Positions 45,155-54,081 of a DNA stretch of 64,000 nucleotides are shown piece by piece. Both the position numbers and the translations under genes were made by a program. The stretch comes from Caulobacter sp. (GTDB lineage: Bacteria > Pseudomonadota > Alphaproteobacteria > Caulobacterales > Caulobacteraceae). The stretch's first letter is position 1, and the number at the start of each line of letters is the position of its first letter. Below the pieces are notes generated by a model that saw only the letters and a list, made by a program, of their open reading frames with translations, searched no databases and had not been told where the DNA came from. The stretch covers positions 1 to 64,000 of the forward strand of contig JAIOXZ010000008.1 of the NCBI GenBank assembly GCA_021741355.1. The letters run 5' to 3'.

Positions 45155-45338
45155 CGTGCACGGCCAGCCTTAAGGGGCGGTTGCCGCCGGCGCGTCGCTG
45201 GACGGGAATCGCACCCCAATTCGGGCCGTCCCGGGCGAGGTGGCGGGTGGAAAAGGCTACGGGCCGGGCGCGCTTGCCGCCCCGCGATGGCGCCGGTGCG
45301 GTCCGGCGCTGGGTGCGTTTTTTCGTTTTGTCCGGCCC

Positions 45339-45352
45339 GCCCATACGTTTTT
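45339..45352 (-). promoter_or_regulatory. AAAACGTATGGGC element upstream of EAL gene
   Basis: Read toward the EAL gene, this site is AAAACGTATGGGC followed by a GGCC tract. The same 13 bases, in the same orientation relative to the downstream gene, occur 154 bp before recA (53914-53928). The two copies lie on either side of the prophage. It may be a shared promoter or regulator site of the originally divergent genes, or part of a duplication linked to the insertion. Confidence 0.5.
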
Positions 45353-45401
45353 GCCATGACAAACCCTTAGTAGGTAAGGGCTAGAGGGGCATTGGTGACC
45401 C

Positions 45402-45515
45402 GATTGAGGACACATTGAGTGTCCTCAATCTAGACGCCCTGAAAAGGCTAAGTGAATCAACGCGCCGGCCAAGCAATGTCCTCAATCAGAACCGCTTGAG
45501 GACGTCATTGAGGAC
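45402..45515. repeat. Left-end repeat cluster (attL-like)
   Basis: Five copies of TTGAGGAC or its complement at 45404, 45421, 45478, 45496 and 45508. The outer pair forms a perfect inverted repeat with 12-nt arms (45402-45413 and 45419-45430) and a 5-nt spacer. The cluster lies beyond the 3' end of the leftward repressor gene, exactly where Mu has its attL transposase sites. It may bind transposase, repressor or both. Confidence 0.7.
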
Positions 45516-46099
45516 TCGGGTTCGTCGGCCGATAGCCACTTCGCGATAGCGGGGAACTTTCCCACGGACGGTGGGGTCATCATTTCGCGCGCCAGCGCCT
45601 CATGGGCCGGCATATCCTGAGCCCAGCTGACCAACTCATCCATAAAGCTGGCGTCCTCCATGAGGCGCACTGCTATCACCGACGCCTCGTCTTTGGATCG
45701 CTTCGCTTCTAACAACAGACGATAGTAGACCGCGTCACAGATAAGATTGAAGGCCCCGGCGACCGTCAAATATGTCAGCCACCGACCTTTTATTCCCCCT
45801 CGCCCATCAACCTTTTGAAACCAATACTCGGCCAATCGCATCGCGACCATTCTAGCGGCCCAGACTCGATCGGCCGCCGGCTCTCCGCCGACTTGGGTGA
45901 GCGCCTCAAATTTGAGTAGGGCCGACTCCGGCACTGCCCCTCGCTGACGCCAGTGCGACACGGTGCTTTGCGCCACCCCCAAAAACGCCGCCAGGTCACG
46001 GTCGGTGGATACGCCCGCGCGACGCTTCATCTCCGCGACAAGCGAGGGGATGTCGCCGGACCAACTGGTCAGGGCTTGCTGTTGTTGAATTTCTGGCAT
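45482..46099 (-). CDS. Phage repressor, CI/HTH type
   Basis: 205 residues from ATG 46099; a TTG start at 46114 would add five residues. The N-terminal HTH is of the bacteriophage CI type (about residues 20-62): SLVAEMKRRAGVSTDRDLAA, FLGVAQSTVSHWRQRGAVP. The rest is helical, with no clear LexA-like peptidase Ser/Lys pair, so SOS-induced self-cleavage is not evident. It is transcribed leftward from a promoter overlapping the rightward early promoter; only 30 bp separate it from the next gene. Role: keeps the transposition genes silent. Confidence 0.85.
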   Translation of the reverse strand: MPEIQQQQALTSWSGDIPSLVAEMKRRAGVSTDRDLAAFLGVAQSTVSHWRQRGAVPESALLKFEALTQVGGEPAADRVWAARMVAMRLAEYWFQKVDGRGGIKGRWLTYLTVAGAFNLICDAVYYRLLLEAKRSKDEASVIAVRLMEDASFMDELVSWAQDMPAHEALAREMMTPPSVGKFPAIAKWLSADEPESSMTSSSGSD

Positions 46100-46129
46100 A
46101 TTCCAAATTATCAACTCAGTGGGGAACCG

Positions 46130-46327
46130 ATGGCCAGCGAGCCAACACTCCTAGCGAAGGTCAAAGCAGGGTTCATCCTTCAAGGGACCACATTCAAGGC
46201 CTGGTGCCGCGAGGGTGGCGTTGATCCGAGCTACGCGCACGCCGTTGTTACAGGGCGAACGAACGGCCGGAAAGCCCAGGCGCTGAGGGCACGAATTCTC
46301 GACAACGCTGAACGCCAGGCAGCCTGA
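46130..46327 (+). CDS. Small HTH protein, Ner-like
   Basis: 65 residues from ATG 46130, after a GGGG run. The whole protein reads as a small DNA-binding domain (GTTFKAWCREGGVDPSYAHA, then VVTGRTNGRKAQALRARI). In Mu-like phages, the first rightward gene after the repressor encodes Ner, which limits early transcription, and this protein has the right size and place. It could also be an excisionase-like factor. The transposase gene starts 2 bp after its stop. Confidence 0.75.
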   Translation: MASEPTLLAKVKAGFILQGTTFKAWCREGGVDPSYAHAVVTGRTNGRKAQALRARILDNAERQAA

Positions 46328-46328
46328 C

Positions 46329-48311
46329 ATGACCGGCGGGGGCGAGTGGCTTGGGGCCGACGAGGTGGCAGAACTGGCGAGGATCACCCGCCGCCATGCG
46401 ACTAGAATCATGGCGACACGGAGCTGGCGGGATTGCCCTCTCGAAGTCCGCCAGGTCGTCGGCCGGGGCGGCAAGGCCGGTCTCAATTATGAGGTCTCTC
46501 TAAGCAGCCTCTCAGAGGCCCTTGGGGACGACCTGAGCGAGCTTATGGAGCTTCCTTGCGATGAAGGGGCGATCCCCCTCCCCGCCGCCAATCAGGGCGC
46601 CGTCGTCGGCGAGCGGTGGGCGATCATCAAGGACGCCCTGGACCATCCGGACGGTGCGAAGCGCGCCGCCGCCGTGAAGGCCGCCGCCGCCGCCTCCGGC
46701 AAAGGGGAGCGCACGCTCTACCGATGGATCGCGGACTATGAGCGCCACGGCCTCCACGGCCTCGCGCGCCGAAAGCCGAAGAACGCTGGCAAGCCGCGCA
46801 TCCATGTCTCGCGCGAGTTCGACCGGGCGTTTAGGGAGGCCGACGGAGCGGATGAGCTGCTCATCGAGATTGGCAATCTGGTCGATCAAGAAATCAAGAC
46901 GTGGTCGGCCACTCGTTTAGGTCAACACGCAGGTGAAGAGCTTCAATCGACTCTAAACTGGCGTCTCTTTGAGATTTGCACCGAGCGAGGACTGTCAATC
47001 CCTCGATCAGCCTTCAAGGTGAGCAAAAAACGCATACTGCGGCGCTCCGAATACCGGGCGGTCAACGACATGAAGAATGACCGGAAGCGGTTTGACGACG
47101 CAAAGCCGCGCGCCCGGCGCGACTGGACCGGATACGATCCGATGGAGATCGTGATCTGCGACGTGAAGCCTCTCGACGTCATCGTGACCCGGCCGGACGG
47201 AACCCCGACCTGGCCAAAACTCATCGGCTTCATGGACGGCGGCACCGGGCGGGTGCGTCATCATCTGGTTCTCTGTCCGAAGGGCGAAGGCGTCAGACAG
47301 GAGCATGTCTGGGCGGCGATCATCGCCATGAACGACGACCGCGAATGGGGTCTGCCGAAGGCACTCTACCTGGACAACGGGTCCGAGTTCAAAGGCCTCG
47401 ATAAACTGCAACCGGCGCTCGCTTTGATGAGCGAAGTCGGGGTGCGAACGATCATCCGGGCCAAGCCCTACAACGGCGCGGCGAAGCCGATTGAGGGCCT
47501 GTTCGCCCAAATGGACAAGCGCTGCTTCAGCTTGATGCCTGGCTATGCCGGCAGCGAGCGCATGAACAAGAAGACTCAGACGGTGGGCCGGCCGCCCAAG
47601 CCCTATCCCGGTTCGTGGGAGCAATTTCAAGAAGACGTGGAAGCGCTGATCAAAGTCTTCAACGCGCGGCCGGTAGGCGGACAGTGGCAGCGCCGGTCCC
47701 CTCGCGAGTGGACGCAGGCGAAGATTGATGCCGGATGGCGGCCATCGCGGGTTTCGCCCACGATTCTCGACGCGATGGGTTGCGAGCGGGAAGCGCGCAA
47801 GCTCACCCGAGGCTGCATCAAGCACGGCGGAGAGTTCTGGCACCATGACGCCCTGCTGGAAGCTGCCCCTGGCGCCAAGGTTCTGGTGGCACTTCCATGG
47901 CGACGGGATGCCGCTCCGCTGATTCAGCTCAAATCCGGAGATTGGGAATACCTACAGCCGGACGGGCGACAGCCTGCACTTTGGGAGCAAGGCGCGAAGG
48001 TCGCGGCCGTCCGGCAGGCTGCTCAAAGGAAGTACGTAGCAGGCCTCGCGAAGGATGCTGGGACTGGCGACCTGATGGCAATGAAGAGGCGCATGGCCGC
48101 CGTCATTGACCCGCTTGACCTTCCCGGAGACGCCGGCCGCCTCGGCGGTACTTCCGAGATGATCGCACTTGGCAACGGCCTCGCGTCCCCCGTGCCCCGA
48201 CAGGAAGCGCGCCTGGACGAAGCCGCGCGCCTGAAGCGCCGCGAGGACGCCGAGACGGCCAGGCTTGAGGCCCTTGCCGCGAAGTCGGAGGAGATGCGCC
48301 GTGCGGGTTGA
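46329..48311 (+). CDS. Mu-like DDE transposase (A protein)
   Basis: 660 residues. The N-terminal part contains a helix-turn-helix region (about 1-60) and a second DNA-binding region (about 100-150, ERTLYRWIADYERHG). The rve-type catalytic core carries the DDE triad D278 (VICDVKPLD), D349 (YLDNGSEFKG) and E389 (AKPIEGLFAQ), all intact. The C-terminus is a beta-barrel domain followed by a charged helix that would bind protein B. It catalyses DNA cutting and strand transfer. The 3' end overlaps the B gene by 11 bp. Confidence 0.93.
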   Translation: MTGGGEWLGADEVAELARITRRHATRIMATRSWRDCPLEVRQVVGRGGKAGLNYEVSLSSLSEALGDDLSELMELPCDEGAIPLPAANQGAVVGERWAIIKDALDHPDGAKRAAAVKAAAAASGKGERTLYRWIADYERHGLHGLARRKPKNAGKPRIHVSREFDRAFREADGADELLIEIGNLVDQEIKTWSATRLGQHAGEELQSTLNWRLFEICTERGLSIPRSAFKVSKKRILRRSEYRAVNDMKNDRKRFDDAKPRARRDWTGYDPMEIVICDVKPLDVIVTRPDGTPTWPKLIGFMDGGTGRVRHHLVLCPKGEGVRQEHVWAAIIAMNDDREWGLPKALYLDNGSEFKGLDKLQPALALMSEVGVRTIIRAKPYNGAAKPIEGLFAQMDKRCFSLMPGYAGSERMNKKTQTVGRPPKPYPGSWEQFQEDVEALIKVFNARPVGGQWQRRSPREWTQAKIDAGWRPSRVSPTILDAMGCEREARKLTRGCIKHGGEFWHHDALLEAAPGAKVLVALPWRRDAAPLIQLKSGDWEYLQPDGRQPALWEQGAKVAAVRQAAQRKYVAGLAKDAGTGDLMAMKRRMAAVIDPLDLPGDAGRLGGTSEMIALGNGLASPVPRQEARLDEAARLKRREDAETARLEALAAKSEEMRRAG

Positions 48312-49095
48312 CGCCAAGGCCCCTGAGATCGTTGTAACGAGCGTCTACCGGACCCTCATGCTCCGTCTTGAAAGGGTGCATGAGGAGTCGGGAATGGGCG
48401 CGTTCGCCGGGCCTCCCGGCCTCGGCAAGACCACCACCGCTCGACAGTTCATCGCTGGCCATCCCGGCGAGGTTGTCGGGGTCACGCTCCGCTTCCCGAA
48501 CTCCAAGAGCGTGATGGTCCTGCAAGAAGTCCTGGCCGCGATACGGCGCGGCCATGGCAGCAGCGACAACCACTGTCCGACCAATCGCCGCGAGCTTCAG
48601 GGCTCAATCCGGAACGCGCTCGAAAACTGGGCCTGGTGGCAGGAGGTCAACCTAGCCCTTCGCGGCGGGCCGCGGATGACCGTTGTCTTCGATGAGGCGC
48701 AAAACCTGTCGCCGGAAGCCATCGAGACCCTGCGGTTCTGGAACGATGCGGCGGACGACGACGCGCCGCCGCTGGCGTTCGCCTTTCTCGGCAACCATCA
48801 ATTCCGACTTGAGGGCGGGGCCTCCGGCCCGAGCTTCCTCTCGGCCGCCGTTACAAGCCGCATGAGCTACCGGAAGACGTTCACCTATCGCGACCTGACC
48901 GACGACGACCTGACCTTGCTCATTGAAGCACGAGGTGTCGTCGAGCCGCAAGCCGTCGAGCTGCTGCTCCGCCATTGCCGGAGCGCGGACGTCAACCGCG
49001 ACCTCCGGCTCCTGACGCGTGAGCTGGACACACTCTTGAACAGCGGCTTGCCCCTCACGGCCGCGACCATCCGCAACTTTCTTGGCATCAGCTGA
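48301..49095 (+). CDS. Mu B-like AAA ATPase (target selection)
   Basis: 264 residues from a GTG at 48301 overlapping the transposase stop; an ATG at 48265 would give a longer, poorer N-terminus. Walker A is GPPGLGKTTTA (about residues 36-46) and Walker B is VVFDEAQNL (about 126-134), both complete. Sensor-like residues follow in FAFLGNHQ. MuB-type proteins form ATP-dependent filaments on target DNA, activate transposase and give target immunity. It is followed by small early genes. Confidence 0.92.
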   Translation: MRVDAKAPEIVVTSVYRTLMLRLERVHEESGMGAFAGPPGLGKTTTARQFIAGHPGEVVGVTLRFPNSKSVMVLQEVLAAIRRGHGSSDNHCPTNRRELQGSIRNALENWAWWQEVNLALRGGPRMTVVFDEAQNLSPEAIETLRFWNDAADDDAPPLAFAFLGNHQFRLEGGASGPSFLSAAVTSRMSYRKTFTYRDLTDDDLTLLIEARGVVEPQAVELLLRHCRSADVNRDLRLLTRELDTLLNSGLPLTAATIRNFLGIS

Positions 49096-49106
49096 ACGGA
49101 GCCACC

Positions 49107-49367
49107 ATGCACGCCCAAGTCTCGATCCGCCCCATCTCTGAAGTGAAGGGCCAGCACCTTCGCCGCGTTGAAAATTGGGGTCTGAAGGTCCTCAAAATCG
49201 AACGCCTGCTGGACCTGGCCAGCGACCAGGTTGGAGAAGACATTCCCTACAGCGCCACCACCGCCCCCGGCCTCGACCGGCTGGACGCGACGATTGACGG
49301 CATCGCGGCTCTGGTCCGCGAGCTGCGGGCGGAGCTGGTTGAGGGGACGGCCGATGTCGAGGCCTAG
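49107..49367 (+). CDS. Small phage early protein, unknown
   Basis: 86 residues, soluble, with a helical C-terminal half. It starts 12 bp after the B gene with GGAGCC just before ATG. The family was not recognised. Its stop lies inside the gemA start region, so the two are coupled. Position matches early accessory genes in Mu-like phages, which often affect host functions, but no role can be given. Confidence 0.6.
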   Translation: MHAQVSIRPISEVKGQHLRRVENWGLKVLKIERLLDLASDQVGEDIPYSATTAPGLDRLDATIDGIAALVRELRAELVEGTADVEA

Positions 49368-49779
49368 ACCTAGGGTGCGACATGGCGTGTTGCGGGTCGC
49401 CAAGGAGCGGCTGGGTCTCAGCGAGGACGACTACCGCGCCCTTCTCGAGAACTACGGCGGGGTATCCAGTGCGACAGAGTTGGACAAGCGCGGCTTCGCG
49501 GCCGTCATGGATCGCTTTCGGGACCTCGGCTTTGTCACGCCTTGGTGGACTCGAAACTTCGGGGTTCGGGAGGGCATGGCCTCGCCGGCGCAGGTAGAGC
49601 TTATCCGCGCTCTTTGGCAGGAGGTGGAAGGCGGTGACGAACGTCACCTGAACAGCTGGCTAGCAAAGTACCACAAGATCGGCGCGCTTCGCTTCGCGAC
49701 GGTGGCCAAGGCCGGGCAGGTGATCGACGCACTGAAGAAGTGGAAGGCGCGCCTAGAGAGGCCTGGGCATGGCGATTGA
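49354..49779 (+). CDS. gemA: GemA-like regulatory protein (DUF1018)
   Basis: 141 residues from ATG 49354 (a longer frame exists upstream but overlaps the previous gene). The sequence follows the Mu gp16/GemA family: RVAKERLGLSEDDYRALLEN, then MASPAQVELIRALWQEVEG and HKIGALRFATVAKAGQVIDALKKW (shown in part). GemA of Mu alters host gene expression and DNA topology. It overlaps the genes before and after it. Confidence 0.85.
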   Translation: MSRPRPRVRHGVLRVAKERLGLSEDDYRALLENYGGVSSATELDKRGFAAVMDRFRDLGFVTPWWTRNFGVREGMASPAQVELIRALWQEVEGGDERHLNSWLAKYHKIGALRFATVAKAGQVIDALKKWKARLERPGHGD

Positions 49780-50122
49780 TCGCAACGATCCGGAGATCCG
49801 GGCCTTCGTCGCCGCGAGCGGCGCGCAGACCTATTCCGAGATGGCGGCGGATTGCATGGCCAAGTTTGGTCCCGACAGGGCTTGGCCTGCTGATCTGCTT
49901 GCGGAAGTCCGGCGCGAAGTTCGCCCGCCCGTCTCGGGCGGCGGGTCGCCTTATGGCGCCGATGTCGAGGTGATCGCCTTCATCCGAGACCGGGCCGACC
50001 TGGTGAAACTAGATGCTCTCTTGAAGGCTGGCCGCGCCGCCTTCGGTAATCGGTTCCCGCCACGGTCGGTGCTGCATCGCCTGGTGGTGAAAATCCGGGC
50101 CGTCAGCGGTCAGGGTCGATAA
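49769..50122 (+). CDS. Phage early protein, unknown
   Basis: 117 residues, starting 11 bp inside the gemA 3' end. Its N-terminus (MAIDRNDPEIRAFVAASGAQ) and central YSEMAADCMAKFGPDRAWP look like a small DNA-binding or terminase-small-subunit-like fold, but the evidence is weak. It ends shortly before a reverse-oriented gene. No family was recognised. Confidence 0.6.
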   Translation: MAIDRNDPEIRAFVAASGAQTYSEMAADCMAKFGPDRAWPADLLAEVRREVRPPVSGGGSPYGADVEVIAFIRDRADLVKLDALLKAGRAAFGNRFPPRSVLHRLVVKIRAVSGQGR

Positions 50123-50213
50123 TATGGCGTCTGGGTTCCCGGCGCACCTTCAGGCCCGCTCTCACGCTTCTCAAAGGCTCTCATGGCCTCGCCTGAGTGG
50201 CAGGGCGGTCTGG

Positions 50214-50525
50214 CTAGAGTTTGATCCCGCGCCGGAAGAGCCCTTCGAGTTTCGTCTTAGCGCGCGCGATGTCGTTGACGGCCTGGTCGGTGTTGTCGAG
50301 CGTTTGAGTAATCTTCCAGGTGAGCGCATCCATGTTGGGCGGTCGTCGGCGGTAGGAGAAGAACAGCTCGTTGCCGTCCACCGGGTCATAGACGTAGTCG
50401 CCGGGCAGCTTTTCCAGGAGCGCTCCGACACCGCGCTTCAGCAACGTCACGTCCCGTTGCAGCTGGTCGATTTTCCGCTCAATGGCGGCATAGTCCACCG
50501 GAGGCTTGTCGGGTTGATCGCCCAC
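50214..50525 (-). CDS. Reverse-oriented coiled-coil protein (moron-like)
   Basis: 103 residues from a GTG at 50525 with GGGAGAG seven bases upstream; longer in-frame starts lack this site. The N-terminal half is a coiled coil (AAIERKIDQLQRDVTLLKRG), and a Tyr/Asp-rich middle segment is followed by a helical, basic C-terminus. It is the only gene on this strand between the repressor and the tape measure, and it interrupts the rightward early operon. This is typical of cargo genes expressed from the lysogen. The overlapping plus-strand frame 50124-50591 is judged a shadow. Confidence 0.65.
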   Translation of the reverse strand: MGDQPDKPPVDYAAIERKIDQLQRDVTLLKRGVGALLEKLPGDYVYDPVDGNELFFSYRRRPPNMDALTWKITQTLDNTDQAVNDIARAKTKLEGLFRRGIKL

Positions 50526-50661
50526 GCATCTCTCCCTTGGCGTTCGCGCCGCCATGGAGCAGAGGGCGGCGTTCGAATCAGCGCCGCATAATAGGGTTCT
50601 GGCCTCACGCTGAAATACTTCAGCATAGTTAGGCCTGAGAATTTTCAGCACCTTTCGCCGC

Positions 50662-51063
50662 ATGAGTTCACCGGCGGCCCCATCCATTGAAAATCTGGAC
50701 GTTGCTGAGGATGACCTTCTTGGCGCGGTTTCAGCGTTGCTGGGGAGCGAAGTCGCCGACCAGGTGTGCGAGGCTTTCGGCGGCCGGCGCGTCTATCTCC
50801 CTCGCCGGCCAATCGTCGGGACGCCGATCACAGAGCTTTTGGGCGGCGCTGGCCACAGCCTGGTCACTGAACGCTTCGGCTCGGGCCATTTCGACATACC
50901 CATGCGGACGGCGACCCTACGCCATCGCAAAATTCTGGCGATGACTCTCGCCGGCGTCCCGGTGGCCGAAATGGCCACTCAGCTCCGGTGCACGGAACGC
51001 CATGTGTACCAGGTCCGTGCCGCCCTCCGGGCCAACGGCAAGATTCCGGAGCGGCGACGATGA
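50662..51063 (+). CDS. mor: Mor-type middle/late transcription activator
   Basis: 133 residues. The central part (DQVCEAFGGRRVYLPRR) and the C-terminal HTH (KILAMTLAGVPVAEMATQLR, CTERHVYQVRAALR) match the Mor/C activator family of Mu. Mor turns on middle transcription after induction. A perfect GCTGAA-N4-TTCAGC dyad at about 50608-50623 lies just upstream and could be a control site. The stop codon overlaps a 27-codon frame (ATGA). Confidence 0.85.
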   Translation: MSSPAAPSIENLDVAEDDLLGAVSALLGSEVADQVCEAFGGRRVYLPRRPIVGTPITELLGGAGHSLVTERFGSGHFDIPMRTATLRHRKILAMTLAGVPVAEMATQLRCTERHVYQVRAALRANGKIPERRR

Positions 51064-51143
51064 CCCGCTCTCCGCCCTCCTTCGCCCGGACCGCAACGGC
51101 CCTGATCACCTTCACCGCCGGCGCTTCCGCCGGAGAAATCTAG
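51060..51143 (+). CDS. 27-codon frame, probable gene remnant
   Basis: ATG at 51060 overlaps the mor stop and the frame ends at TAG 51141. The 27 residues (starting MTRSPPSFARTA, with a hydrophobic middle) look like the first part of a membrane or signal-bearing protein. In Mu-like phages, the genes after mor are usually lysis genes. It may be the stump of such a gene left by a deletion that brought the capsid gene next to mor. Only 9 bp separate it from the capsid gene. Confidence 0.45.
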   Translation: MTRSPPSFARTATALITFTAGASAGEI

Positions 51144-51152
51144 GTTCTCTCA

Positions 51153-52046
51153 ATGCTCATCAATGCAGCGGCCCTCTCCGGCATCTACACGGCGTTCAAA
51201 GCTGTCTTCAATACCGGCTTCGAAGGCGCAAACGCCCGATACAAAGAAATCTCGATGACCGTTCCCTCGGCGGCCGCCGAAAACGCCTACGGTTGGCTCG
51301 GCCAGCTGCCGCGCATCCGGGAATGGCTCGGAGAGCGGCACATCAAGTCGCTTGAGGCGCACGGCTATGTCATCAAGAACCGCAAATTCGAACTGACCCT
51401 TTCGGTTAGCCGGGAGAGCGTCGAAGACGACACCTACGGGCTGCTCTCCCCGCTGTTCTCGGAAATGGGTCGATCTGCTGCGACCCATCCCGATGAGCTT
51501 CTCTTCACCCTGTTGAAGTCGGGCTTTACCAATGCCTGCTACGACGGCCAGAACTTCTTCGATACCGACCATCCCGGCCACATCGTGGCAGGCGAGCCGG
51601 TGTCGATTTCGAACGTGCAAGCCGGCGCTGGGGAACCGTGGTTCTTGCTGGATACCTCGCGGGCCATCAAGCCCCTGATCTGGCAACCGCGCACCGACTA
51701 CAAGATGACGGCCCTCAACAACGACGGCGACGAAAACGTCTTCTTCCGCGATGAGTTCATCTACGGCGTCCGCGCGCGCGTGAACGCTGGCTTCGGCCTG
51801 TGGCAGCTCGCCTTCGGCTCCAAGGCCGCGCTCAACTCGGAAAACTACGCGGCCGCCCGCGCGGCCATGTCGGCGATGAAGGGTGAAGAAGGCTCGCCGC
51901 TCGGCATCGTGCCCGACACCCTGGTTGTCGGCCCCGCGCTCGAAGAGGCGGCGCTCCAGCTCCTCAATGCCGAACGCACGGCCGCCGACACTTCGAACGT
52001 CTGGAAGGGCACTGCCAAGCTGATCATCTCGCCCTGGCTGGCCTGA
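51153..52046 (+). CDS. Mu T-like major capsid protein
   Basis: 297 residues, full length for the Mu gpT family. The N-terminus is MLINAAALSGIYTAFKAVF, a middle conserved stretch is EPWFLLDTSRAIKPLIWQPR, then FIYGVRARVNAGFGLWQLAF, and the end is WKGTAKLIISPWLA. All parts of the family are present, so the gene is intact. Its normal upstream partners (scaffold and protease) are missing. No good ribosome-binding site lies within 12 bp of the ATG, which fits a deletion junction upstream. Confidence 0.92.
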   Translation: MLINAAALSGIYTAFKAVFNTGFEGANARYKEISMTVPSAAAENAYGWLGQLPRIREWLGERHIKSLEAHGYVIKNRKFELTLSVSRESVEDDTYGLLSPLFSEMGRSAATHPDELLFTLLKSGFTNACYDGQNFFDTDHPGHIVAGEPVSISNVQAGAGEPWFLLDTSRAIKPLIWQPRTDYKMTALNNDGDENVFFRDEFIYGVRARVNAGFGLWQLAFGSKAALNSENYAAARAAMSAMKGEEGSPLGIVPDTLVVGPALEEAALQLLNAERTAADTSNVWKGTAKLIISPWLA

Positions 52047-52049
52047 CCC

Positions 52050-53516
52050 ATGACCACCGTCCCCATGAACCTGAAACTGATCCTGCAAGCGGTTGACCGC
52101 TGGAGCGGGCCCACGTCGAAGGCGACCGGGGCGATCGGCGGCTTGATAGGTCGTATCGGGACCCTGACGGGTAAACTCGCGAAGGTCTCAGCAATTGGCG
52201 GGGCGGTCGCTGGCACTGTAGCGGTCGCGGCCGGCTTGGGGCTCGCCAAGGCATCTTGGTCAATGGTCAAGGAGGCCGCCGACGCCGGTGACGCCGCCTA
52301 CAACAGCGCACAGAAGGTCGGGCTGACGGTCCAGAGCTATCAGCGTCTCGCCGCAGCGGCCAAGATCGCCAACCTTGAATCTGGCGAGTTCAACGTCGGG
52401 CTCAGAACGCTGGCGAGCAACGCCGTTTCTGCCGCTGAGGGGAGCAAGGAGGACGCGAAGGCCTTCGCGGCGCTTGGCATCAAACTCAAGGGCGCGAACG
52501 GCAAAGTTCTTGAGACAGACCAACTCTTAGCGGCGATTGCCGACCGCTTTGCAACGATGCCTGACGGTCCGTTGAAGACGGCCACGGCGATGCGCCTCCT
52601 TGGCCGTTCCGGCACGGAGATGATCCCGCTCCTCAACATGGGCGGCGCGGCGATCCGCAAGGCGGGCGACGAGGCTGAACGCTTGGGCGTGGTGTTGTCT
52701 GACGACGCGGCAAAGGCGGGCGACGACTTCAACGACAACCTCGACCGCATGAAATACAGCGTCCTGGGGCTAAAGATTGGCATCGGCGCGGCGCTATTGC
52801 CGACACTCAATCGTGCGGTTGTCGCCATCACGGAGTGGATTGCAGCGCACCGGGTGGACGTCATCTCGAAGGTCTCCGCCGTCGTCTCCCAACTATCGGT
52901 CTCGCTAGCCAAGGTGGACTGGATCGCATTCGCCGACGGGATCGGAAATGCGCTGGTTTTGGGGACCAAGCTCTTTGTATGGATTGGGGGACTTGAAGGC
53001 ATCATCACCGGTGGCGGGATCGCAGCCATCGCAGGGCTGACGAATGGCATTTTCGGCCTCGCGGTGGCGCTCGGCGTCGCCACCGGGCCAGTAGGCTGGA
53101 TCATCCTCGCCGTCGGCGCGCTGGCGGCCGGCGCATTCTTCCTCTGGCGAAACTGGAGCAAGGTCTCCAAGTGGTTCGGCGACATGTGGACGGGCCTGGC
53201 CACCAAGTTCAAGGTCGGCGCGGCGGCTGTGTGGAACGCCCTGCCGCCCTGGCTACGATTCATCCTCAAGGGCATCGCCTTCGTGGTGAAGTTTGCCAGC
53301 CCTGTTGGCGCGGCCGCCTCCGTAGCGGGCGCGGCAGTCCGGGCAGGCGCGCAACCCCGGCCGGCGGTCGGTGCAGCTGCCAGAGACGGCGCTCGCGGTC
53401 GGGTGGACGTTGGCATCCGCGTGGACCAGGACGGCCGCGTAAGGGCGACCACGGCCCGCGCATCTGGCCAGGCGGGCATTGACTTCAGTCGTGGTGCTTT
53501 GATGGCCTCAGACTAG
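52050..53516 (+). CDS. Tail tape-measure protein (Mu-like)
   Basis: 488 residues starting 3 bp after the capsid stop. The N-terminus (LKLILQAVDRWSGPTSKATG) and the repeated Gly/Ala/Leu hydrophobic helices (about 35-65, 310-375) match phage tape-measure proteins, as does the C-terminal VDVGIRVDQDGRVRATTARA. It sets tail length and is ejected with DNA. At 488 residues it is shorter than typical long-tailed phages of this group. It normally follows tail tube and chaperone genes, which are absent. Confidence 0.85.
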   Translation: MTTVPMNLKLILQAVDRWSGPTSKATGAIGGLIGRIGTLTGKLAKVSAIGGAVAGTVAVAAGLGLAKASWSMVKEAADAGDAAYNSAQKVGLTVQSYQRLAAAAKIANLESGEFNVGLRTLASNAVSAAEGSKEDAKAFAALGIKLKGANGKVLETDQLLAAIADRFATMPDGPLKTATAMRLLGRSGTEMIPLLNMGGAAIRKAGDEAERLGVVLSDDAAKAGDDFNDNLDRMKYSVLGLKIGIGAALLPTLNRAVVAITEWIAAHRVDVISKVSAVVSQLSVSLAKVDWIAFADGIGNALVLGTKLFVWIGGLEGIITGGGIAAIAGLTNGIFGLAVALGVATGPVGWIILAVGALAAGAFFLWRNWSKVSKWFGDMWTGLATKFKVGAAAVWNALPPWLRFILKGIAFVVKFASPVGAAASVAGAAVRAGAQPRPAVGAAARDGARGRVDVGIRVDQDGRVRATTARASGQAGIDFSRGALMASD

Positions 53517-53567
53517 GCCTCGAAGGCGTTTCGGAATCCGGCCCGTGCTTCAGCATCGCGGGTCGGT

Positions 53568-53808
53568 CAGAGGGGTGATCCTGGCCCCTCGCTTGGGTGA
53601 CCGGCGGTGACGGACGCCGGTTTTGGGACGCTGGGGCTGGAGCCCCGGCGTCCCACCCTGAGCGCATACAGATCGGCCCGCAGATCGCCCTTGAGCGACC
53701 ATTCAGGCGGGACGCCAGAGGGGATGTCGTCGCCCCTCGCTTGGGTGACCGGGGATGACAGATAGCCGGTCTGGGGGCGCTGGAGGTTCAACTCTCTAGC
53801 GTCCCACC
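53568..53808. repeat. Two copies of a structured intergenic repeat
   Basis: A unit of about 90 bp occurs twice, 148 bp apart. The exact shared core is 21 bp (53584-53604 and 53732-53752), and flanking bases match partly. Copy 1 has a perfect-type hairpin with arms 53624-53638 and 53641-53655 (one mismatch). Copy 2 keeps an analogous but weaker stem. The composition resembles dispersed host intergenic repeats rather than phage DNA, so the right edge of the prophage is placed before it. Confidence 0.65.
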
Positions 53809-54081
53809 CGAGACCATCCCGGCCCATTTTTCGGGGCTCTGAGAGGCCCCTGATCGACCGTTGAGAGGCGGTTCACATCCCACGGTGTGTCGGCGTATCC
53901 CATCGTATCTCGGCCAAAACGTATGGGCACGGCCAATCTGTATGAGCGTCTCTAGCGCGTCGGGCGAAACACAATTTTTGCGTGCAGCAATGAGAACATA
54001 TTGCCAACCGGAACAAACCATGATCAAAGTTCGTCCGTGGGCCACGCGGCCCGGCAGAATCGTGAAATAAGGACGGCTCCC
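53809..54081 (+). promoter_or_regulatory. recA upstream region
   Basis: 273 bp without a gene. It contains the AAAACGTATGGGC element (53914-53928) shared with the EAL upstream region. Two GAAC tetramers occur near 53993 and 54010 and a GTTC near 54029, but no pair shows the GTTC-N7-GTTC spacing of the alphaproteobacterial LexA box. A ribosome-binding site, AAGGA, lies 10 bp before the start codon. Confidence 0.5.

What the first reader, a model, noticed from the sequence alone, without database searches (positions are those of the whole stretch)
45402..53516. A compact Mu-like element with a full transposition module but only two virion genes
Repressor, Ner-like protein, A (D278, D349, E389 intact), B (Walker A/B intact), GemA and Mor are all uninterrupted, while only the capsid protein T and a tape-measure protein remain of the structural genes. 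Neither half shows frameshifts or internal stops. A prophage decaying at random would be expected to carry broken frames; here whole genes are missing and the remaining ones are intact. It could be a young deletion derivative, or a stable reduced element (satellite-like or domesticated) that relies on a helper for packaging.
Basis: partly seen in the sequence, partly recalled or inferred. Interest (0 to 1): 0.8.

Follow-up and report, generated by a model that had tools for sequence, protein, structure and literature searches.

The report
Mu-like transposing phage satellite
An 8.6-kb jumping element carries phage-type transposition genes and a capsid protein but almost nothing else of a virus; similar small elements sit in some twenty other bacterial genomes, so it looks like one of a family of parasites of Mu-like phages.

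Summary
It carries repressor, Ner, A (DDE), B, GemA, a small HTH gene, Mor, full-length gpT and a tape measure; no TerL, portal or other tail gene was recognised.

It is not a private relic. Searches started from it uncovered 7-9 kb Mu-like elements in the family of Rhodobacter capsulatus: 20 of 394 genomes carry their transposase type, 16 with gpT or pieces of it beside. Usual genes: c, ner, A, B, gemA, T, protease I, Mor-like, HTH; no portal or TerL hit. Twelve of 25 loci have TG...CA ends with an exact 5-bp target duplication. Twenty gpT proteins, the window's included, form one clade apart from full phages. T and I evolve under purifying selection in the sisters. The HTH of their hallmark gene resembles Mu small terminase; the window's version is a weaker match.

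Best reading: a transposing phage satellite that moves by its own A/B, supplies its own shell protein, and borrows helper TerL, portal and tail. The window is a divergent member (other A/B, tape measure, no protease). No experiment yet.

The parts
45329..53957 (+). whole element, approximate ends (TG at 45329-45330; right end within about 53948-53960)
   Evidence: inverted end repeats; host homology resumes at 53954-53970; no exact 5-bp duplication found
45339..45355 (+). left end repeat, putative A-binding site
   Evidence: binding inferred
45403..45516 (.). five TTGAGGAC copies between end and repressor, probable operators
   Evidence: function inferred
45482..46114 (-). CI-type repressor c
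   Evidence: PF07022 5.8e-7
46130..46327 (+). Ner-like regulator
   Evidence: phrog_15281 2.2e-12, phrog_925 1e-7 (given as 46118-46327)
46329..48311 (+). transposase A, 660 aa, DDE intact
   Evidence: phrog_310 7.8e-44; D278 D349 E389
48265..49095 (+). transposition ATPase B (true start probably further in)
   Evidence: AAA_22 7.7e-13, phrog_296 1.7e-18
49318..49779 (+). GemA
   Evidence: PF06252 5.3e-23
49769..50122 (+). small HTH gene, weak relative of the hallmark TerS-like gene of the sister elements; two stretches align to it
   Evidence: h129 HMM E 1e-4; hhalign prob 85 and 57
50214..50687 (-). 157-aa ORF of unknown function, coding-like GC3, overlaps the start of Mor
   Evidence: no family
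50662..51063 (+). Mor-type late activator
   Evidence: PF08765 4.2e-7, phrog_836 1.8e-14
51153..52046 (+). major capsid protein gpT, full length, in the clade of the compact elements
   Evidence: PF10124 2.5e-124; trees
52050..53516 (+). tail tape measure protein, 488 aa
   Evidence: phrog_8462 2.6e-45
53912..53947 (-). right end: two inverted end repeats (53912-53928, 53931-53947)

Best explanation
The element is a divergent member of a family of compact transposing phage satellites derived from Mu-like phages. Shown by sequence: it keeps a regulated transposition module (c, ner, A, B) and matching end repeats; sister elements are bounded by TG...CA and 5-bp duplications, so the family has moved by Mu-type transposition. 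It keeps a capsid protein of the family's own gpT clade plus one other virion gene (tape measure here, protease/scaffold I in most sisters), a Mor-type activator and a small DNA-binding gene that in the sisters has an HTH resembling Mu small terminase. Inferred: when a Mu-like phage is active, the satellite is derepressed, copies itself by transposition, builds shells with its own gpT, has its DNA picked for packaging by its TerS-like protein, and uses the helper's large terminase, portal, neck and tail to leave the cell. The tape measure, where present, would set or capture the tail.
For: Similar reduced elements in GTDB loci L109-L116, among them strains of R. capsulatus, Rhodovulum euryhalinum, Gemmobacter caeni and Pseudoruegeria, and in 20 of 394 genomes of R. 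capsulatus' family by A, 16 with gpT or pieces of it beside. No terL, portal, F, sheath or tube hit (E 1e-3) in the fetched stretches of these elements. The 15 other genomes over the same cut-off score 207-266 bits and all 15 have a Mu portal. Of 80 IMG/VR gpT loci (best of at least 597) 77 have canonical neighbours as far as the contig reaches. Exact 5-bp duplications with TG/CA in 12 of 25 loci. gpT of 20 rows is one clade, 99/90, in 98% of bootstrap trees. dN/dS of T 0.12-0.29 and I 0.12-0.46, 7 overlapping pairs each. The last gene: 22 compact elements, 0 other mapped loci at E<1e-10; its HTH matches Gp27-type TerS (hhalign 94.9%, E 4.8e-8) against at most 19.7% for 14 other profiles and 0.5% for 20 column shuffles. 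Two copies in one genome: 97.6% identity over 1.4 kb up to the right end. Mu portal in 6 of 20 carriers against 43 of 374 others, one-sided p 0.027.
Against: No induction, particle or transfer data. 14 of 20 carriers have no Mu portal, nor has the window's own genome, so no helper is demonstrated. The window's A, B and Mor score better against the full-phage profiles than against the satellite ones (101 v 26, 76 v 33, 59 v 47 bits). The window lacks protease I; its HTH gene lies elsewhere and is a weak match; no 5-bp duplication was found for it. Thirteen of 25 loci gave no exact duplication at the fixed place (L116 matches one base off). The first gpT tree, with only four atypical rows, did not make them one clade (2 changes; one clade in 10% of bootstraps) and put a very long full-phage row, L103, beside three of them; L100-L103 were left out later. 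No Pfam Gp27 match in 7 of these HTH proteins, and their domain order differs. Sisters L112, L114, L174, L183, L189, L190 are broken or partial.
Confidence: 0.65

Rival explanations
1. Decaying Mu-like prophage: the window copy is one of many independent deletion derivatives of full phages, its intact frames being chance or youth.
For: Some sisters are broken or partial (L112, L114, L174, L183, L189, L190). Mu-like prophages with portal and canonical head genes exist in the same genus, 5 loci in 4 of 74 other genomes. No duplication was found for the window copy, and its A and B are closer to full-phage profiles.
Against: One gpT clade, a recurring set of missing genes, both ends kept with 12 exact duplications, purifying selection on T and I in sisters, and a hallmark gene not found in the other mapped loci.
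Confidence: 0.15
2. Selfish Mu-type transposon whose capsid genes act against phages: gpT, protease or tape measure poison helper assembly, and the element itself is not packaged.
For: The structural genes vary (T+I, T+TMP, TMP alone in L116), and one 4.6-kb relative has none (L184), as expected if any assembly protein could interfere.
Against: A TerS-like gene is conserved in the sisters and suggests DNA packaging. PADLOC gave only weak HTH matches of the repressor among 6 proteins tested.
Confidence: 0.13
3. Domesticated particle system: the host keeps gpT shells for its own use (GTA-like or encapsulin-like).
For: Purifying selection on T and I.
Against: Elements keep A, B and ends, are flanked by different genes in the seven named loci with flanks (genes recognised by eye), show target duplications and occur in 20 of 394 sampled genomes, unlike a vertically kept host locus.
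Confidence: 0.04

Closest known systems
Phage Mu and Mu-like phages (Mu, RcapMu, RC1; records)
   Same: c, ner, A, B, GemA, Mor, gpT, protease I; in sister elements TG...CA ends and 5-bp duplications (Mu's own duplication is recalled)
   Different: 7-9 kb instead of 37-40 kb; no TerL, portal, F, tail tube, sheath or fibres recognised; gpT close behind the early genes; an extra HTH gene; separate gpT clade
cfPICI, capsid-forming phage-inducible chromosomal islands (named in passages of PMC11389934 and PMC10803314; gene content recalled)
   Same: satellite with its own capsid protein that would borrow the helper's tail
   Different: cfPICIs integrate site-specifically and encode portal and terminase (recalled); here DDE transposition, and no portal or TerL
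PICI/SaPI type satellites with terS (a passage of PMC10803314, lists terS among genes that redirect packaging in other satellites)
   Same: small DNA-binding gene resembling TerS that could redirect the helper's large terminase
   Different: no integrase recognised in the window element; in the sisters the HTH follows a coiled coil, unlike Mu Gp27
Mulch and Flayer satellites of Streptomyces (abstract of PMC10690885 read)
   Same: satellites that encode encapsidation machinery themselves
   Different: those lack key replication genes; here the transposition genes are present and most virion genes are missing

Membership tests
Mu-like transposable phage (complete) | DDE transposase A with B | tested here: met
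Mu-like transposable phage (complete) | TerL, portal, F, tail genes | tested here: not met
   only T and TMP in the window; no PF06074 in its genome
Compact Mu-like elements found here | gpT in the compact-element clade | tested here: met
   99/90, 96/87
Compact Mu-like elements found here | c, ner, A, B, gemA, T within under 10 kb, no portal or TerL | tested here: met
   length
Compact Mu-like elements found here | A of the sisters' type with TTTCANNNGGTTTGATACC-like end sites | tested here: not met
   A closer to full set; no such site in the window; the window has another end repeat
Compact Mu-like elements found here | TerS-like HTH gene | tested here: inconclusive
   weak match: E 1e-4 and hhalign prob 85
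Compact Mu-like elements found here | 5-bp target duplication | tested here: inconclusive
   12 of 25 other loci yes; window none found
Phage satellite | dependence on a helper for particle formation | not testable with these tools
   inferred from missing genes; co-residence 6 of 20
Mu small terminase (Gp27, PF11985), for the hallmark HTH gene | Pfam match | tested here: not met
   none of 7 proteins up to E 1; RC1 and Mu TerS do match
Mu small terminase (Gp27, PF11985), for the hallmark HTH gene | HTH related to that of Gp27 | tested here: met
   profile comparison 94.9%, E 4.8e-8, with controls
cfPICI | own portal and terminase, integrase (features recalled) | tested here: not met
   no terL or portal hit; no integrase family among the ten window proteins

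The most novel reading that the evidence does not exclude
An undescribed family of phage satellites that spread by Mu-type transposition: they carry their own shell protein (with a mostly shorter protease/scaffold) or a tape measure to remodel helper virions, and a small-terminase-like protein to steer the helper's packaging motor to their DNA. The window copy would be a second, early-branching lineage in a different, unnamed host.
Probability: 0.55. Interest if true: 0.85.

Novelty: new variant of a known kind. Interest (0 to 1): 0.76.

Why it matters
The satellite families listed in the review passages I saw (P4-like, PICI, cfPICI, PLE, PICMI, VEIMEs, tycheposons; PMC11389934) include none described as Mu-like, and that text has no 'Mu-like' or 'transposable phage' at all. 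A satellite with a full transposition module that keeps only the shell or tail ruler would show that Mu-like phages have their own parasites, give a small natural system for studying capsid assembly and packaging choice in Mu-type phages, and explain some short 'incomplete Mu-like prophages' as working elements. Carriers recorded as strains (R. capsulatus SP108, Rhodovulum euryhalinum DSM 4868) make it testable.

Tried and rejected
Single-protein searches with the window's A found no relative in IMG/VR, GTDB220 contigs or the other 384 of 385 class genomes. A DNA search of 61 genomes including its own gave, elsewhere, only matches of under 100 bases. TTGAGGAC repeats as A-binding sites: rejected, no partner at the right end. 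Decay of a local full prophage: same-genus gpT lies outside the clade. Tail shortening by the tape measure: not supported, some full phages have equally short ones. Protease length: medians 310 (23 rows, three of them fragments) against 350 (87 rows), but the ranges overlap. Fold search of the HTH protein of L115 (mean pLDDT 80, pTM 0.42): best rows are paired-domain and homeodomain HTHs, Z 7.6 and below, which decides nothing; no terminase among the listed rows. Pfam gives it at most a homeodomain-like HTH (HTH_32, 2e-4, in one of 7), so a role in transcription or transposition remains possible. The sisters' Mor-like gene is named by my own HMM; Pfam Mor is weak (0.036 in L114) or absent in 3 tested. 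In one search the 'full' sets were mixed: for A and B they held L112, L181-L183 and L185, and for GemA and Mor also compact rows such as L191, so that comparison is blurred. In the trees, 51 of the full-phage rows were kept (near-alike rows and the long L100-L103 dropped) and every second of these. The window's repeat pattern was drawn from its own sites. The site spacings (63-67 and 22-24) were set in the search after seeing them; no shuffled control was run for the duplications. Paper searches for Mu-like or transposable satellites gave nothing that describes them (listings with abstract starts only); passages were seen and one abstract. Most subscription journals and preprints are not in that library.
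Full report
The thing itself. The window holds a Mu-type early block (c, ner, A, B, GemA), a small HTH gene, Mor, gpT and a tape measure, all open. It lies between an EAL-type gene and recA (recognised by eye from the translations). The best 20-base inverted pair between the flanks, near 45336 and 53912, has 17 identities, and 0 of 60 shuffles reached that; a second right-hand copy lies at 53931. Homology to relatives' recA upstream DNA resumes at 53954-53970. The element is therefore about 8.6 kb with both ends, not 45402-53516. In two of nine relatives compared, the EAL-type gene stands next to recA without it (L120, L124). I found no 5-bp duplication for this copy.

Similar layouts elsewhere. 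gpT of the window brought in the best 80 of at least 597 IMG/VR loci. Mapped with iterative HMMs, 77 showed canonical neighbours (I, D2190 or gp36 side) as far as the contig reached, as did the short stretches from 11 other genomes of the class; L012, L040 and L076 did not. L040 is c-ner-A-B-gemA-Mor-T-TMP-HTH in 9.0 kb, nearly the window's set, and its contig ends at the predicted right terminus. The A of L040 and L012 found eight loci in GTDB genomes. An alignment of seven A proteins then matched 35 of 394 genomes of R. capsulatus' family (Rhodobacteraceae in GTDB, name recalled) at E <= 1e-60 (three candidates scored per genome). I count 20 of these as the compact type: 19 above 330 bits, plus G697 by its gene map. 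The other 15 score 207-266 bits, and all 15 have a Mu portal. Of the 20, 16 have gpT or pieces of it beside A, all with protease I; one (L116) has a tape measure instead, one (L184) neither, and two (G775, G662) are cut by contig ends. Mor-like genes stand before T or after I. No terL, portal, F, sheath or tube hit lies in the fetched stretches of these elements. One more IMG/VR contig, L203, has the same order up to I.

Ends. A core TTTCAN(3-5)GGTTTG occurs at the ends of many of these elements and once in 1.29 Mb of other loci. Searching for pairs about 65 bases apart at the left and 23 at the right, and placing the terminus 7 bases outside, gives TG...CA and an exact 5-bp duplication in 12 of 25 loci (L109, L115, L173-L177, L179, L180, L186-L188). 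Thirteen did not match: contig ends, broken copies, or no duplication; L116 matches one base off. Sizes with a duplication are 6.9-8.9 kb, and 10.8 kb for L188, whose A is split. The flanking genes differ between the seven named loci that have flanks (read by eye).

Descent and selection. A first gpT tree with four atypical rows needed two changes. With the later loci, 20 rows, the window's at the base, form one clade (99/90; 98% of bootstrap trees; 0 of 500 shuffles as low). A second tree with five gpT rows from the window's own genus keeps it (96/87). In the sisters T and I are under purifying selection (dN/dS 0.12-0.29 and 0.12-0.46, 7 overlapping pairs each, some dS near saturation). The window's A, B and Mor score better with full-phage profiles and its GemA with satellite ones (129 against 100 bits, mixed sets), so the window is a mosaic or an early branch.

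A packaging gene? The hallmark gene (22 compact elements, no other mapped locus at E<1e-10) has a long helix followed by an HTH. The HTH matches the profile of Mu-type small terminases (Pfam Phage_Mu_Gp27) at 94.9% and E 4.8e-8, against at most 19.7% for 14 other profiles and 0.5% for 20 column shuffles. Pfam itself does not call it. The window's ORF 49769-50122 aligns to it weakly in two stretches (HMM E 1e-4; hhalign prob 85 and 57). That it acts as a small terminase is inference.

Helpers. A Mu portal was found in 5 of 8 genomes of the GTDB loci (one a fragment), and in 6 of 20 carriers against 43 of 374 other genomes (one-sided p 0.027). The window's own genome has none, though 4 of 74 other genomes of its genus carry canonical Mu-like head genes with a portal.

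Verdict. By gpT clade and layout it belongs, as a divergent member, to what appears to be an undescribed family of transposing, capsid-encoding phage satellites. Packaging by a helper is the best inference from the missing genes and the TerS-like gene of the sisters, and awaits experiment. On checking I lowered the main confidence from 0.66 to 0.65 and the interest from 0.77 to 0.76, because the first gpT tree and the weak window HTH match had not been given their weight.

Noticed in passing
window 50214-50687: 157-aa minus-strand ORF with coding-like GC3 between the HTH gene and Mor, overlapping Mor's start; no family in Pfam or PADLOC.
   Followed up: partly
window 53568-53627 and 53716-53775: Two 60-base direct repeats (77% identical) between the tape measure gene and the right end repeats.
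   Followed up: no
L184 1990-6604: About 4.6-kb relative with A, B, Mor-like and the HTH gene but no gpT or protease: a further reduced form.
   Followed up: partly
L116 12829-14712: Rhodovulum euryhalinum element carries a tape measure (PF06791) in place of gpT and protease.
   Followed up: partly
L180 and L190: Two copies in one genome, 97.6% identical over 1.4 kb up to the right end of L180; L190 is partial.
   Followed up: yes
L076 249-5828: Metagenome contig with tape measure, Mor-like, gpT of the compact clade, protease and a small ORF with a similar DPE motif, in that order: perhaps a larger relative.
   Followed up: partly
L040 1-116 and 9157: Contig holds 116 bases left of the element and stops at its predicted right terminus, as would happen if flanks vary between copies or packaged molecules.
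   Followed up: no
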